From the NCBI GenBank assembly GCA_022385805.1, contig MU277675.1, forward strand, positions 112,037-159,190: a stretch of 47,154 nt of DNA, in the 5' to 3' direction. The translations under genes were made by a program, and so were the position numbers. The notes under the pieces are model-generated. The model was given only the letters and a program-made list of their open reading frames with translations. It did not search any database and was not told the DNA's origin. The stretch is from Pilatotrama ljubarskyi. Its lineage: Eukaryota; Basidiomycota; Agaricomycetes; Polyporales; Polyporaceae. Shown one piece after another: positions 39,998 to 47,154 of this stretch; the first letter of the stretch is position 1, and each line of letters starts with the position of its first letter.

Positions 39998-40483
39998 CCG
40001 CTCAGCTTCATGCCATGTCTTCGTCAGGAACATGAGTCCGCGGCAGTAGGAGGTTGCGGATGTTCTGAATGATGACTCATAAGCATTCACATTGTCGTGT
40101 ACAAGTATGGATGCCAATTCCAGTGTCGTTATGTAGCACCCGCCTCAATGAACCTCTTCGAATTCCAAGTTCCACAACGCCTCTCCCAGTACATGCACAT
40201 GCATCTCCACAGTAGAGTCTAACATTCTGGTGAGAACGAGTAGTTCTTTCAGGGTGCTCAACATAACTACTGTAGCTCAGGTACGTCAACAATGTGCTGT
40301 GGTAGAAGTGCGGTTCAGGGCGCCTTCAATAAGTTCTGCATGGTATCTACCATTTGCATTTTCGAGGCAATTGCCATTGGTGTGCTTCCTGATCACCTGA
40401 GGCAAATACACGGCTCAACCCGGCTGCACGTTTGTACCGCCCAACTGTTACGTTGACCGAATGGTGAAGAGCCCATATGTGAA
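39998..40483. other. Intergenic space before the retroelement
   Basis: About 490 bp, more AT-rich than the flanks, with no GCGAA/TTCGC enrichment. The sharp change in composition near 40480 marks where the retroelement probably begins. Confidence 0.5.
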
Positions 40484-41423
40484 TGTCCTTACCAGGCTTG
40501 CACTACAGTCGCAGCATCGACGCTGATGCGACCCCACTCCGCACACGAGGCCGCGGAGCACCGAAGGCGCTCCCTTCGCGCATCTTCGTGCATCTTCGCA
40601 GTTCTTCGCGCATCTTCGCAGTTCTTCGCACAGGCCCGCAGGCCTTCACAGCTTCGCATCTTCGCGCATCTTCGCAGTTCTTCGCACAGACCCACAGGCC
40701 TTCGCAGCTTCGCAGCCTCCGCAACGGATCGCAAAGTCCCGCAAGGGACTCGGCGTGCAGCCATTGCGCAGAACCCGGTGGATGACCAGGCGTCTGGGGA
40801 GCGAAGTCCTTCGCACCAGCCTGCCCTGAAGATGCCCCCGGCGCTAGGTCCGTGCGTTCGCAGCCGGCTCGACAGCACGAAGGTCCAGTCCGGGGTCACA
40901 TGCGTAGCACGCCATTTTGGCACCGATGTAAAATACTCGCGCTTCGCAGCGCAGCAATCCAGATTCCGTTCCCCCTCTCGAGAGCAGAGATCTCACTGCG
41001 TTTACGCCCGCGTCCCTCTTGCGTTTACTACTTCGCCGCGTCGAGTTTTCTTACTGAGCATTGCGTCTTCCTCTTCACTGTTCGCATCTTACACCGAGTT
41101 GCTGTTGAATACTGCGTAGCTGCGAAGAATCACCGAGTCCCTCCGCGTCCACGTTGAGCCCGACGGGACTGCGAAGAGCGTAACGAGTACCCGCGAAGAC
41201 TCGCGAACGGTTGCGAACATCTGCGAAAAGCTTGCGAACACCTACGAAGAACTCCGTTCGCTCCAATCCGCCGCCGCTTCATGACGTTCGCCTCAAGGGC
41301 ACCCCGGCCGAACCGCTATATCTCCTGATCCCACCATCTACCCCAGCTCAGCTCGTCAGAGGCCTCGACCTACAAAGGCTCTCGGCCTCAACCTCACGGC
41401 TTTAGGGTAGATTTGGCACATCA
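40484..41423 (+). repeat. Candidate 5' LTR (single copy in window)
   Basis: Runs from TGTCCTTACC to a CA at 41422-41423, obeying the TG...CA rule. The downstream sequence TGGTGACCACC (41428-41438) could be a primer-binding site, with a TTTC spacer. Since the second LTR is outside the window, the borders are guesses from composition and TG/CA only. Confidence 0.4.
40591..40715 (+). repeat. Nested TTCGC-rich direct repeats in the LTR
   Basis: The 19-mer CATCTTCGCAGTTCTTCGC occurs at 40591, 40611 and 40667. A block of about 48 bp starting at 40611 (19-mer, then CACAGGCCCGCAGGCCTTC and CAGCTTCGCA) returns at 40667 with a few changes, a 56-bp period. Confidence 0.85.
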
Positions 41424-41452
41424 TTTCTGGTGACCACCGCAGGGGGGAACGA

Positions 41453-44431
41453 GTGAGTACTTCGAACTCACTCCGCCGGCTTCCTCCTTCGACGGCAACT
41501 TCGCCGTCCCCTTTCGCCATTCCACGAAGGCACCGAGCATCGTCGTCGCAGGCCAATCTTGCCATCGAAATTGCAGTTGCGCACTTCACCCACGTCCTTA
41601 AACGGATCCAAAACCGCGTCGACCACGACACACTTGCGGCGTTCATCGAGCCTGTCCTCGGCCTACTAGACCGTGGTTGCGAAGCCTTGCAAGACGACCC
41701 CGAAGCTATCGTCTGGTTCCGAAGCGCAGTTGAAGAAGTAGCTTCGCAACGCACGTCGCTCCGAGAAGACCCCACGAACATCGCCGAGGAGTCATTCCAT
41801 ATCTATACCACACCGCGAACGAGCCCGACGCCCATCCCGCGCGAACTATCCCCCCTCACAGAACTCTCCATCGAATCACCCCTCACCGCGTCTGCGCCTC
41901 CTCAAACTACAATGGCTGAGAACCGTCCCCCTATGCCAGCTCGCGGACACACGACAGCTCCGACCTTCGATCCTTCGCAGCCGTGAACGCTCCGCAGGTT
42001 CTTCCAAGACATCGAGACCCTCTTTGAGCGGAGTGGCGTCGAAACAGACCCTGCACGCAAGTCGTGGGTGGTTCGCTACCTCCCTATCGATGTCTCGGAC
42101 CTCTGTGAAAGCCTCCCGGAATACGCGAATGAGGACAAGACGTACGAAGACTTCAAGAAGGCCGTCATCGCGCTCTACCCGGGTGCGGGAGAGGATCGCA
42201 AGTTCGCGGTCGCGGATGTCGAGAATTTGGTGGCAAAGCGAGCGGCCGTACCCATCGCCAACATCTCGGAGCTCTCGGCGTACTATCGCGACTTCTTCTC
42301 GATGACATCGTACCTCATGAAGCACAATCGCCTCTCCGAGTCCGAGCAATCGCGGCTGTTCATCCGCGGAATCGCACCACCTCTTCGCGATCAGGTTTCG
42401 CAGCATTTGCAGCTGAAGCTACCCGACCACTACCCAGATGATCCGTATAAACTCGAGGAGATTTACGATGCCGCAAAGTTCGTCCTGCACGGGACCCAAC
42501 CCACGGTGGCGGAAGCAGGCCGAGGCGCGCCAGGGAGCGAAGGGCGCGAGGGCATCGTAAAAGTGGAAGAGATCGCACCCCTGTTACGTTTCCTGGCCCA
42601 GTCGGTCGGCGAAGGCTCTGCGAACGCGAACGCAAGCGGAAACACAAACCCGTTCGCAGGTAACCGCTACAACGCCGGCGCGCCTTCAGTCAACCGCTAC
42701 GGCGGCGGAGCGTATCCCCCACAAGACGCGCGTCTCCAGAACGGGTACTTCTGTCATTACTGCGGCGGACCCAACTGCCAGCTTCGCACCTGCCCCTTTA
42801 TCGAAGAAGACATGCGGGCGGGACGCGTCTTTCGCAACCAGGAGGGTCGGGTCGTCCTGCCCAACGGAAACTTCGTGCCCCGTCACCTACCCGGATATGA
42901 AGGGGTCACCATGCGTGATCGCGTCTATGAATGGCATCGTCGCAACCCTGGCGCGCTTCGTCCGCAGGGCCAGCAACCCCCGCAACGGCAGCAGCAAGGA
43001 GCGAACATGCAGGGCCAGGGAGGCGCAGCGAACCCGGCAGCACAGCTTTTCTTCGCGGTAGCAACGGACCCAGCAGCTGTCTCCGCCTTCCAGCTAAGTA
43101 CGGACGAGCGTATAGACCAGTTGGAAAGGGAGCTGTTCAACTTGCGGCAAGGAAGGACTCGCTTCGACAGAGTAGAGGTGCCGAGGAGGAGACCAAACCC
43201 TTCGCAGTCGCGAGGGACCTCGCAAGAACGTCACGACGCGCCACCGCACCTACCCACGTCCTCGAGCAACAATCCCTTCCGTGCGCAGCCGCGAGCAGCA
43301 GCACAGGCACCCCCAGCGTCACGCGAACACGTTGACGAGCCTTCGCGATTTGCACCGGTTGGAGGGCGATCCGAACAAGTCAAGCGATCGGGACAGGACA
43401 CGACGGTGGAGACGGCGAAGAAGACCGCGCCGACGAAGGAAGGCCCGCCCCGACCACCGACCCCTGTGCGGGCCCCACTGTCTGAGCAGGCAGCCGAGCA
43501 CCCTTTCGCGAAGGCAAGGGACGCCACATACGCCCCGCCGCGAGCCCGTAACTTCGGCGCCCCTCCCACGAAGCCCAAGGATGGAGAGCGAGAAACGGCG
43601 TACCGCACCCAGGCCCCTGTCCACGACGTCAAGTTCGCCGAGGAAATCTTCGCGAGGTCGATGAAGACGCCCGTGATTACTCTGTCGCCCGAGGAGCTGC
43701 TGTCCATCGCCCCGGAGGTTCGCGCGAAGTATCGCGAAGCAGTTACCCTGCGAAGGATCCCGAATGTGCGGAGTGTCAGCTTTGCGTCCATCGAGGAGGT
43801 GACCGACGAGGACAATGGTGATAGCGCGGAGCACTTCCTCGCAAGCGTGTCCTGTAGCGGCGAGCCCCTCGAACCGGGGGCCTCTGTATTGCCGGACCCG
43901 TACGAGGTCTACCTACGCGATGTGGCTGCGGACCGAGAGCCCTCTCCGCTAACGGTTGCGAAGGAGTCCTACGCGCTTCGCTCGATCGTTGGGCTAGTGG
44001 ACAACAAGGAGTACGTCGAGGCGATCATCGACCCTGGTTGTATGGTCATCGCGATGTCGGAGAACGTTTGCCATGCTCTCGGGATGTGGTACGACCCCAG
44101 CGTCCAACTGAGGATGATCTCTGCGAACGGCGAAGTGGACAGCTCCTTGGGCCTGGTTCGCAACGTGCCCTTTTGCGTAGCGGACATCGTCCTGTACCTG
44201 CAAGTTCACGTCATTTGCCACGCCGCCTACGACATGCTGCTCGGCCGGCCGTTCGACGTCCTGACGAAGAGCGTGGTCAAAAACTTCGCGAACGAAGACC
44301 AGACCATAACCATTCGCTGCCCCAACACCGGCCAGGTCGCGACCATTCCGACCATTCCTCGGGGACGGGCTCAGTTTCGCGAAGGCACAGCGACCCCCGC
44401 CTCCCGCTCCCTCGATCAGCGAGCTGATTGA
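41453..44431 (+). pseudogene. gag-pro: Retroelement gag-protease, one in-frame TGA
   Basis: One reading frame from about 41411 to 44431 with a single TGA at 41984-41986. The N-terminal part has helices around AHFTHVLKRIQNRVDHDTL and a DDPEAIVWF segment. The capsid part follows the TGA (LRRFFQDIETLFERSGV, YLPIDVSDLCESLPEYA, ELSAYYRDFFSMTSYLMKH), then a knuckle CHYCGGPNCQLRTC, which is C-X2-C-X4-C-X4-C with Cys where the usual knuckle has His. A Gln/Pro-rich and Arg/Pro-rich linker leads to the retroviral-type aspartic protease: EAIIDPGCMVIAMSE, LGLVRNVPF, DMLLGRPFDVL. The active site is DPG, not D-T/S-G. The frame lacks an ATG near its start (GTG at 41453; first good ATG about 41911), so the start is unsure. 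Related elements read through the position of the TGA. Confidence 0.85.
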
Positions 44432-46868
44432 GGACGGAACCGTCGGACTTGGCCTCGTCATCGAGACGGAGTACGGCGTGCCAACGATCCATGCATATAC
44501 CCAGATTCTAGAACCATCTCTCTCGATCCCAGCTCTCTATCTATCAGCCTGCGAAGAACTACCTCTAGCCGCGAACGCGCCCACCGAGGACAAAACATCA
44601 CAAAATGCGCGTACAGGCGGGCCCTCCACTGTCACGAGCAAAACCCCACAACGCGTACGTGTTCCCACCCATCTTAGACCCGAGTCTCTCTCACTTTCCT
44701 ACCAGTCGTCTCCGCTTGCTCGCGGCGAGCCCATACCCGCGGAGACACCTGTTCGCGATGCCGTTCGACAGGATTGCCTGCATGCGAACGACGCGAAGCC
44801 AGTTCAACCTGCCTTCGCAGATACCCATACCCTCGCGGACAGTTCGTGAACCCAGTTCGCGTTCACGTACGCGACAGCAGATGGATCCTATTTCGTCGCG
44901 CCGACGGGCGACCGCGAACCATCTGCCATACTACTCTCCGCGAAGAAGAAGTACAAGCCAGTCGCGAAGAAGGTGCGCGCAGCGTTGGGCACATGCCCTG
45001 AGAAGTTTCACATCGAACGCAACATCACTGGCGACCCGCTCGCGACCATGCCGGAGTTGAACCCAAACCTGCCGGAGTTCGCGCCCACTGGCCGTTATAC
45101 CAAAGACCGGAACATAGCGATGGACCGCGCGCACAGCGGAGACTTCCTATGGCCAGAAGAGCGAAAACTCCTGCACGACTTCGTTGCGAAGCACAACAAC
45201 GCCTTCGCATGGAACGACTCCGAGCGGGGGTGCTTCAAGCCGGAGTACTTTCCTCCGATTGAATTCCCCGTCCTGCCCCACACGCCATGGGTCGAGAAGA
45301 ACATCCCTATCCCACCCGGGCTGTACAAGGAAGTCTGCGAGATCCTGAAGAAGAAGATCACAGCGGGCGTGTACGAGCCCTCGAACTCCTTCTACCGTTC
45401 GCGATGGTTCTGTGTTCTCAAGAAGGACGGCAAATTGCTCCACATCGTGCACAGTCTGGAACCGCTCAACAAGGTCACGATCCAGCACTCGGGAGTCCTG
45501 CCGACACCAGACTACCTCGCAGAGCAGTTCGCAGGTCGCCCTTGCAGCGCGATCTTCGACCTGTACGTGGGCTACGACGAACGGCTCATCGCGGAGTCTT
45601 CGCGCGACCTCACCACCTTCCAAACGCCTTTCGGAGCACTACGGCACTGCACGCTACCCATGGGCTGGTCGAACTCAGTGCCCATCTTCCATGACGACGT
45701 AGCCTACATCCTGCGGCCGGAGATCCCAACTACCACTGTCCCCTACACCGATGATGTTCCTTGCAAAGGGCCTGAGTCGGACTATCGCAGGGCGGACGGG
45801 ACTTACGAGACCATCCCGGAGAACCACGGCATTCGTCGCTTCGTCTGGGAGCACTTCGCGAACATTAACCGAGTGGTACAGCGAATGAAATACGCTGGGG
45901 GGACCTTCTCTGGTACGAAGTCAATACTGTGCGCTCGCGAAATCATGGTTGTGGGCCATCGATGTACGCCGGAGGGACGTCTGCCCGACGAGTCCCGCGT
46001 AGCGGCCATCAAAAACTGGGGGCCCTGCAAGGACCTCTCCGAGGTTCGCGCTTTCCTAGGGACCATCGGGGTCGCGAGGATCTTCATTCGCAACTTCGCG
46101 AAGCGAGCGAACGCCCTGGTCCACCTCACGCGGAAGGACGTGCCCTTCGAGTTCGGCGAAGCGCAAATCAAGGCCATGGAAGACCTCAAGCAGGCTCTGC
46201 TCGAGTCGCCGGCCCTTCGCGCGATAGACTACGAGTCTCCTGCGCCCGTTATCCTCGCAGTCGACACCTCGTACATCGCCGTCGGCTACCACCTTGCGCA
46301 ATGCGACCGCGAAAAACCGCAGATCCGCTACTACAGTCGCTTCGGCTCCATCACGCTCAATGAACGCGAAGCACGTTTTTCTCAACCGAAGCTGGAGCTA
46401 TACGGTCTCTTCCGCGCGCTACAAGCGACCAAACTCTACCTCATCGGTGTTCGCAACCTCGTCATCGAAGTGGACGCCCGCTCCATCCGCGGAATGCTTA
46501 ACAACCCAGACCTGGCCCCCAGCGCAAGCATGAATAGATGGATCGTCACGATTCTCACCTTCCACTTCCACCTTGTACACGTTCCCGAGACTTTGCACGG
46601 ACCTGACGGACTATCGCGAAGACCTCCGCAACCGGGAGATGAGCCAGCGGAAGACCCGAGCGACTTCGAAGACTGGATCGACCGAGTACACGGGTTCCTG
46701 CACCAGATTTTGCCCCACCCGGCGTGCAGCGGTACCGCGCTGCACGACCCCACCCGTGTCTTCGCTATCGCAACTGCGACCGAGGACGGTCACGATCTCA
46801 GTGGGGGGGAGGACAGCGAGGCCGGCGAAGCGAAGGACAGGGACAGAGCCACGAGAACAGACCAGTGA
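44310..46868 (+). pseudogene. pol: Retroelement pol: reverse transcriptase and RNase H, broken by TGA
   Basis: The pol frame is one base ahead of gag-protease and overlaps it from about 44310 to 44431. It is open from there except for a TGA at 44847-44849, and a second TGA at 46866-46868. RT blocks: EPSNSFYRSRWFCVLKKDGK, FDLYVGYDERLIAE, FQTPFGALRHCTLPMGWSN, and the catalytic YTDDVP at 45744-45755, so the Asp pair is kept. Connection: VVGHRCTPEGRLPDE and LGTIGVARIFIRNFAKRAN. RNase H: ILAVDTS (first Asp), NEREARFSQPKLELYG (Glu), IEVDARSIRGML (Asp), then a chromo-less spacer rich in Asp/Glu. All catalytic residues I can place are present, so the decay looks recent. ATG at 44973 is an internal Met, not the natural start. 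Confidence 0.88.
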
Positions 46869-47154
46869 AGCGAGCGAGTGGCAGGACGAGCTGCGATCAG
46901 AATCGCAAGCGAGAACGAAGCCGCGACCATCGACGAGCCAGAGGGCGAAGTGGTCATGCCCTACTCAGAAGCTGCGAAGGCCGCATACGACAGGCTGCGA
47001 AGGACAGACGAGTGGCTGCGAACCCTCCAGCGACCAGCGGACATGAAGGACTCGGAGTACGCAAGCTTCATCCGCTACGCGCAGCATTTCTTTCGCGACA
47101 ACGAGAAACTCTGGCGAAAGGATCCGCAAGGGGCTCACAAGCTCGTCGTCTGGC
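46869..47154 (+). pseudogene. pol: Retroelement pol continuation (pre-integrase), cut by window end
   Basis: After the TGA at 46866 the same frame stays open to the window end. It contains VVMPYSEAAKAAYDRLRRTD and EYASFIRYAQHFFRDNEKLWR; the latter resembles the segment before the zinc-binding integrase N-domain of Ty3 elements (an LWR-type motif). The integrase catalytic core is not reached. Confidence 0.7.

What the first reader, a model, noticed from the sequence alone, without database searches (positions are those of the whole stretch)
40484..47154. Retroelement saturated with the pentamer GCGAA/TTCGC in all frames
Direct reading: GCGAA occurs six times in 41171-41238 alone (41171, 41193, 41203, 41213, 41223, 41234), a non-coding stretch. 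It is equally dense in gag and pol (for example 42610-42660, 44760-44830, 46970-47030), and appears in all codon phases (TTC GCG, T TCG C, TT CGC, G CGA A, GC GAA), so codon choice for one amino-acid pair does not explain it. The flanking 39998-40483 lacks it. Chance predicts about one GCGAA per kb per strand. Possible meanings (inference): a binding site repeated through the element (host factor, silencing or packaging signal), a mutation bias of reverse transcription, or selection on RNA structure. I know of no described case in fungal retroelements.
Basis: partly seen in the sequence, partly recalled or inferred. Interest (0 to 1): 0.8.

Follow-up and report, generated by a model that had tools for sequence, protein, structure and literature searches.

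The report
Retroelement saturated with one five-letter word
One family of jumping genes in a wood-decay mushroom carries a single exact five-letter DNA word far more often than chance in both its control regions and its genes, while two close sister families carry it only at background level, as if it were a private tag read by a DNA-binding protein that is still unknown.

Summary
In detail: GCGAA/TTCGC occurs 111 times in 40484-47154 (16.6/kb) against 118 in the other 40.5 kb (2.9/kb). The element is a Ty3/gypsy retrotransposon, LTR 40524-41423; the host is very probably Pilatotrama ljubarskyi.

Codon-preserving shuffles do not explain it: gag-PR 44 vs 21.9, RT-RNaseH 25 vs 10.8. The exact pentamer is raised; its 15 one-mismatch words lie near sister level. 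Four other copies have 13-15/kb, but two sister families in the same genome (66% protein identity, same G+C) have 3.0-3.5/kb. So host mutation bias or translation cannot explain it; the words arose by point substitution after the split.

Local RNA structure is not favoured, and private LTR mutations do not create the word in excess. Evidence of ongoing selection is weak and partly contrary. LTRs carry variable arrays, mostly 8-11 bp spaced.

Best reading, unproven: a family-private binding word for a sequence-specific DNA-binding protein, working like the Arabidopsis VANDAL/VANC motifs but extended into genes. The protein is not identified. Insertions use NCGN target sites (25 of 25).

The parts
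40520..40523 (+). ACGC, 5' target-site copy of this insertion (NCGN type)
   Evidence: Flank of the LTR; NCGN on at least one side in 25 of 25 insertions with a readable end
40524..41423 (+). 5' LTR (TGATG...CATCA), 26 words in 900 bp
   Evidence: Boundaries from alignment of copies, solo LTRs and 4-bp duplications; count
40573..40714 (+). TTCGC array in the LTR, units here spaced 8, 10, 20 or 28 bp; unit number differs between copies
41171..41238 (+). GCGAA array in the LTR, spacing 22,10,10,10,11; longer copies alternate 10/11 bp (21-bp unit)
41453..41986 (+). open frame at the start of gag (ends at an in-frame TGA), 7 words
42068..44431 (+). gag and aspartyl protease frame, 37 words
   Evidence: ORF; weak Pfam Asp_protease_2 and gag-asp_proteas, both below the curated cut-off; gag homologues in Trametes and relatives; count
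44432..44972 (+). stretch between the two long frames, 10 words
   Evidence: count; a 151-aa open frame overlaps it
44973..46868 (+). reverse transcriptase and RNase H frame, 25 words
   Evidence: Pfam RT_RNaseH_2 and RT_RNaseH; 120 of 1355 homologues listed; count
46869..47154 (+). probably the start of the integrase region, cut by the window end, 6 words
   Evidence: count; assignment inferred from homologues such as P0002 that carry integrase domains after RNase H

Best explanation
The word GCGAA/TTCGC is a family-private cis-acting tag of one Ty3/gypsy family. Shown: exact pentamer, both strands, LTR and genes alike, gained by point substitution since the split from sister families, in coding sequence beyond what amino acids and codon usage require, and present as variable arrays in the LTR with about 10-bp spacing. 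Inferred: a sequence-specific protein (encoded by the element, or a host factor that the element exploits) binds the word in double-stranded DNA, cooperatively at the LTR arrays, and along the element body. The density of sites lets it tell its own family from host DNA and sister elements. The likeliest benefit is opposition to silencing or activation of transcription, as VANC proteins do for VANDAL transposons. Selection acted on actively copying elements; inserted copies decay.
For: Codon shuffles: 44 vs 21.9 (sd 3.4, max 34 of 2000) in gag-PR and 25 vs 10.8 (sd 2.0, max 18 of 2000) in RT-RH; GCGAA has the highest z of all pentamers in both; a stricter shuffle that also keeps codon-junction dinucleotides gives 26.5 and 13.9 (100 runs each, max 34 and 19). 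Excess in 6 of 6 sub-blocks. Exactness: 14.8/kb in the body vs 3.2 in sisters and 2.8 in host, with 15 of 15 one-mismatch words at 0.3-6.1/kb. Private to the family: four further copies 13.0-15.0/kb; sisters L029 and L033 3.0 and 3.5/kb; 14 more distant gypsy stretches 0.5-5.2/kb. Of 22 words alignable to a sister, 2 (L029) and 4 (L033) are shared and none needs a gap. Non-coding: 26 LTR pieces, window included and several partial, at 19.9-45.2/kb; these were found through word-rich patterns, so the range is biased upward. The array-type pattern has 224 genome matches vs 2 for the reversed control. Arrays with 10/11-bp alternation. Selection sign: private non-CpG changes in words of coding copies 0 vs 5.6 expected (P 0.0037), CpG transitions 20 vs 19.6. 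Strand balance 46:39 in the body. Functional precedent: VANC21 binds a short motif private to VANDAL21, single-base changes strongly cut binding, density matters, motifs grow by tandem repeats (PMC5735166, 12 passages seen).
Against: No binding protein was found or tested. VANC motifs sit mainly in non-coding regions (PMC5735166); here coding sequence is filled too, which such a model does not require. Selection is weakly shown: in the LTR, private non-CpG changes that destroy words were 14 vs 7.1 expected, and by a second method non-CpG changes in LTR words were 15 vs 9.3 (10 vs 10.7 in the arrays, 3 vs 4.6 outside). Polymorphisms shared by several copies show no depletion at words (LTR 5 vs 5.4 and 9 vs 9.4; body 2 of 151 vs 28 of 1838 sites). 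The 15 of 22 words on changed amino acids are about what 66% identity gives, so they show no extra divergence. Words in the body are not evenly spaced (CV 0.89, P 0.20) and helix phasing there is not convincing. Flank preference in the body is slight, unusual for a long binding motif. The 3' part of the element is outside the window or reads N, so an extra ORF could not be looked for.
Confidence: 0.42

Rival explanations
1. Mutation bias: the element's own reverse transcription, or a modifying enzyme acting on it, turns neighbouring words into GCGAA, and the saturation is an equilibrium without function.
For: Both strands, all frames and non-coding parts are affected. LTR arrays differ in unit number between copies, so slippage does multiply words there. 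Sister families differ, so a family-specific enzyme is conceivable. Shared differences show no depletion at words.
Against: Private changes in LTR copies: 3 of 163 create the word (0 of 78 CpG-type, 3 of 85 other); 2.9 expected without bias; a fivefold bias on the non-CpG class would give about 11. One-mismatch words are not depleted overall relative to sisters. That RT errors are not known to be specific to five bases is recalled. Many private changes may postdate insertion and so miss the RT step.
Confidence: 0.15
2. RNA-level function: TTCGC and GCGAA pair with each other, giving compact or self-recognising genomic RNA for packaging or dimer formation.
For: Word and complement are equally frequent (54:57). 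In the LTR the TTCGC array faces a GCGAA array, and 5 of 8 GCGAA pair fully with a TTCGC in the predicted fold. Two words that could pair by wobble, GCAAA and ACGAA, are somewhat above the sisters (2.4 vs 0.9 and 3.1 vs 2.3/kb), though these are also CpG-decay products. A different family (L039) folds better than its shuffles (z -4.6).
Against: Native gag-PR and RT-RH are less stable than synonymous shuffles (z +2.9 and +1.5, 300-base windows, 40 shuffles each). The wobble-compatible words GCGGA, GCGAG and GTGAA are not clearly raised over the sisters (6.1 vs 5.6, 4.7 vs 7.0, 1.4 vs 1.9/kb). Long-range pairing was not tested.
Confidence: 0.12
3. The word sites are used by the host, for example as targets of a silencing factor that recognises this family.
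For: Would also need a family-private word; CpG transitions show that copies are mutated after insertion.
Against: A target for silencing should be lost, not gained and kept, by an active element; the body holds about 11 more words per kb than the sisters.
Confidence: 0.08
4. Composition and codon usage: an unusual but functionless mix of Ala GCG, Phe TTC, Ser TCG and CpG richness.
For: Codon usage is itself shifted to GCG (22 vs 9 codons in the sister L029), and a Markov model of order 3 expects 59.1 of the 85 words in the body and reaches 87 at most in 300 runs.
Against: Synonymous shuffles that keep this codon usage give half the count. The LTR is not coding and is denser (28.9/kb). Two sisters with the same G+C have host-level density.
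Confidence: 0.05

Closest known systems
VANDAL DNA transposons and VANC anti-silencing proteins, Arabidopsis (PMC5735166, 12 passages seen; PMC10398659, abstract and section list seen)
   Same: Short word private to one transposon family, rare in sister families and host, high local density, non-coding arrays that vary in number between copies.
   Different: Here a Ty3/gypsy retrotransposon of a basidiomycete, a 5-bp word, coding regions filled by point substitution, both orientations mixed in the body; no VANC-like protein was found or could be looked for in the unread 3' part.
Sirevirus LTR repeated motifs (RM boxes) (PMC2829016, abstract and section list seen)
   Same: Short motif with a CG-containing core in very high copy number within retrotransposon LTRs, upstream of the promoter.
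   Different: RM boxes are symmetric, belong to Ty1/copia elements, and are described in LTRs and by the envelope gene, not through gag and pol.
Basidiomycete Ty3/gypsy elements of the same clade (Trametes, Cubamyces, Lenzites, Meripilus proteins)
   Same: Same gag and RT-RNaseH proteins; 59-79% identity among the 120 listed of 1355 RT hits, 28-95% among 65 gag hits.
   Different: Two sister families in this genome have the word only at host level; the DNA of relatives in other species could not be read.

Membership tests
Ty3/gypsy LTR retrotransposon | RT with RNase H of the Ty3 type | tested here: met
   PF17919 47.2 bits and PF17917 41.5 bits, both over cut-off
Ty3/gypsy LTR retrotransposon | LTRs with TG...CA ends and short target duplication | tested here: met
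   TGATG...CATCA ends; 4-bp identical duplications in 7 of 11 insertions with both sides readable
Ty3/gypsy LTR retrotransposon | integrase downstream of RNase H | tested here: inconclusive
   Window ends at 47154 and the next 8961 bases of the contig read N; homologues carry it
VANC-type sequence-specific anti-silencing system | family-private short word at high density | tested here: met
VANC-type sequence-specific anti-silencing system | motif arrays of variable number in non-coding parts | tested here: met
VANC-type sequence-specific anti-silencing system | motif mainly confined to non-coding regions | tested here: not met
   13.1-15.7/kb in the gag, gag-PR and RT-RH frames
VANC-type sequence-specific anti-silencing system | element-encoded protein that binds the motif and removes methylation | not testable with these tools
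   No binding or methylation data; 3' part of the element not readable

The most novel reading that the evidence does not exclude
A retrotransposon family rewrote its whole readable genome, proteins included, around one exact pentamer that acts as a molecular self-tag for an element-specific DNA-binding protein, a recognition code that differs between families in the same genome.
Probability: 0.25. Interest if true: 0.9.

Novelty: new variant of a known kind. Interest (0 to 1): 0.7.

Why it matters
If a single five-base word can be driven into about 15 sites per kb of coding DNA, against codon choice, then a strong sequence-level pressure acts on a transposon that is not protein function, translation or host mutation. 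It would offer a clean system to find how transposable elements distinguish self from host and from sister elements. The prediction is sharp: a protein that reads exactly GCGAA.

Tried and rejected
Codon bias, host mutation bias, translation selection: rejected by shuffles and by sister families. Local RNA structure: not supported. DNA mini-hairpin GCGAAGC (recalled as unusually stable): 14 of 111 words in the element and 22 of 118 in the rest continue so, thus not specifically enriched. Cell-cycle box CRCGAAA (recalled): only 10% of 111 words are followed by A. Regular spacing in the body: none.

Protein-level signal: with the element's own codon usage the RT-RH sequence had more word potential than 117 of 120 homologues, but with sister codon usage GCGAA is only the third-listed word (z 2.9), so I rest nothing on it. 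Residues that encode words are slightly more often identical to homologues in RT-RH (mean +0.038; lower in 23 of 120) but not in gag (mean -0.011; lower in 35 of the 62 proteins with enough aligned residues, 3 of 65 dropped); the homologues are not independent. Trametes cingulata P0124: 48 of 50 word residues identical vs 372 of 427 others (Fisher P 0.07), a hint that its element may share the word.

An earlier substitution count (non-CpG 6 vs 16.7 expected, CpG 31 vs 22.1) was biased by choosing words in the window copy and was replaced. In one search the CpG expectation for the arrays (222) is meaningless because few outside sites match. Relatives in viral contigs: 12 pattern matches, none a relative.

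Literature: only two searches held GCGAA as a term and both returned no paper. Searches on related notions were seen as listings only, in part (for example 10 of 312), and no title or abstract start described such a case; passages of PMC12730594 did not bear on it. Most subscription journals are not held, so the absence is weak.

Full report
What was checked. The window lies in a 33.1-Mb genome of 173 contigs. A gag homologue, P0121, is named as Pilatotrama ljubarskyi and lies on a contig of 335,917 bases, the length of contig C27 here; so the host is very probably that polypore (Polyporaceae). Counting confirms the claim: 111 words in 40484-47154 and 118 in the preceding 40,483 bases. Of 100 host 1-kb bins the highest holds 8; six element bins hold 10 to 28. 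Orientation is balanced (54 and 57).

What it is. The saturated unit is a Ty3/gypsy LTR retrotransposon: RNase H domains over the Pfam cut-off, a protease match below it, LTR 40524-41423 with TGATG...CATCA ends. The gag frame has an in-frame stop at 41984-41986, and the two long frames, 42068-44431 and 44973-46868, are not in the same frame, so this copy may not be intact. The part beyond the window reads N for 8961 bases.

Is it more than composition? Synonymous shuffles that keep protein and codon usage give 21.9 (sd 3.4) for 44 observed in gag-PR and 10.8 (sd 2.0) for 25 in RT-RH; 2000 shuffles each never reached the observed value. A stricter shuffle that also keeps codon-junction dinucleotides gives 26.5 and 13.9 (100 runs each, maxima 34 and 19). 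GCGAA had the highest z of all pentamers in both. Of 6 coding sub-blocks 6 show excess, with P from 0.0255 down to 0 of 2000. In four other copies GCGAA is also the top word (z 4.4-6.2), while 11 host ORFs reach at most z 3.4 for any word counted six times or more. Markov models of order 1 and 2 expect 20.7 and 35.0 for 85 in the body; order 3, which holds the word's own tetramers, expects 59.1 and reaches 87 at most in 300 runs.

How sharp is it? In the body GCGAA stands at 14.8/kb; sisters have 3.2 and host 2.8. The 15 one-mismatch words are at 0.3-6.1/kb. Most are as in the sisters; GCAAA (2.4 vs 0.9), GCGTA (3.0 vs 1.2) and GCGAT (5.6 vs 3.5) are somewhat higher, and GCAAA is also what CpG decay makes of the word. 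Flanking bases in the coding part resemble those in shuffles, apart from fewer G at -1 (6 vs 14.4), fewer T at +6 (10 vs 18) and some more G at +5 (31 vs 24). In the LTR the array units fix the flanks (T at -1 in 17 of 26, G at +5 in 18 of 26).

Whose is it? Of 20 gypsy stretches fetched, 4 belong to this family (95-97% DNA identity) with 13.0-15.0/kb, 2 to sister families (66% protein identity, G+C 0.61) with 3.0 and 3.5/kb, and 14 to more distant families with 0.5-5.2/kb. In 26 LTR pieces, the window's included and several partial, density is 19.9-45.2/kb, median 27.6; they were found by word-rich patterns, which biases this upward. The triple-TTCGC pattern has 224 matches in the genome, overlapping ones counted, and 2 for the reversed pattern. 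Of 25 words in RT-RH, 22 lie in the part aligned to the sisters, gap-free; 2 and 4 are shared; 15 of 22 fall on changed amino acids in each comparison, about what 66% identity gives. They therefore arose by scattered substitution, not by insertion.

Is it kept by selection? Pairwise, words are intact in 446 of 532 cases (84%) against 72% for other CpG words and 75% for all words, but that set is biased by choosing words in the window copy, and other CpG words often hold two CpGs. The leave-one-out count is cleaner: in coding copies private CpG transitions fall on words as expected (20 vs 19.6), other private changes do not (0 vs 5.6, P 0.0037). In the LTR outside the arrays the figures are 5 vs 13.7 (CpG, P 0.007) and 3 vs 4.6. 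Against this stand 14 destroying non-CpG changes vs 7.1 expected in the whole LTR, 15 vs 9.3 by the second method, 10 vs 10.7 inside arrays, and no depletion among shared differences. Copies are related, so P values are guides.

Anatomy of the arrays. The LTR has a TTCGC array near its 5' end and a GCGAA array about 600 bp on. Spacing is mostly 8, 10 or 20 in the first and 10 or 11 in the second; long copies (L056, L058, L061) alternate 10 and 11, a 21-bp unit that averages 10.5 bp, close to one helical turn (the helical repeat is recalled knowledge). Unit number differs between copies.

Tests of mechanism. RNA: native gag-PR and RT-RH fold worse than shuffles (z +2.9, +1.5), in 300-base windows only. 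Mutation bias: 3 of 163 private LTR changes create the word, 2.9 expected. Both fall short, and a protein that reads the word in DNA remains the simplest account, though none was identified. The nearest described system is VANDAL/VANC; I saw 12 passages of PMC5735166 and the abstract and section list of PMC10398659. Here the word also fills coding DNA, so I do not file the element as a member of that system; I claim only that it may work like it.

A second result. Of 26 LTR pieces 25 have a readable end, and 25 of 25 show NCGN next to it on at least one side (5' side 19 of 21, 3' side 13 of 15; 7 of 11 with both sides readable are identical 4-bp duplications). NCGN makes up 9.0% of host tetranucleotides. 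The integrase thus appears to choose CpG-centred sites. The contexts used are mostly not those of the word (TCGC adjoins the LTR in one case, L019), so target choice does not explain the word.

Verdict. A real, sharp and family-private sequence pressure of unknown agent; most likely a binding word.

Noticed in passing
LTR ends: window 40520-40523 and LTR pieces in L011-L063: Target duplications of the form NCGN: CpG-centred integration on at least one side in 25 of 25 insertions with a readable end.
   Followed up: yes
L035, L038, L039, L049 (contigs C87, C49, C146): A distant gypsy family has its own raised words (ACTCC, CCGGA, CGGAG, GGAACTCC; ACTCC 50 vs 11.5 expected in 5.7 kb), less sharp, ACTCC strand-skewed (36 to 17), and the L039 frame folds better than synonymous shuffles (z -4.6).
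   Followed up: partly
L036, L051 (contig C17): Another gypsy family is raised in GTCGA (28 vs 7.7 expected in 2.3 kb), with raised neighbours.
   Followed up: no
L019 (contig C66:1-6127), 1898-2757: A solo LTR of the same family lies inside another copy of the element, in opposite orientation.
   Followed up: no
L017 and L029 (contig C46:244034-246764): An LTR of this family with an expanded TTCGC array (22 TTCGC in 509 bp) begins a few hundred bases downstream of a sister-family RT-RNaseH, perhaps an insertion into that element.
   Followed up: partly
window, gag frame 42068-44431: The zinc-knuckle-like stretch of gag reads CHYCGGPNCQLRTC, with Cys where the usual knuckle has His (motif recalled; translation).
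   Followed up: no
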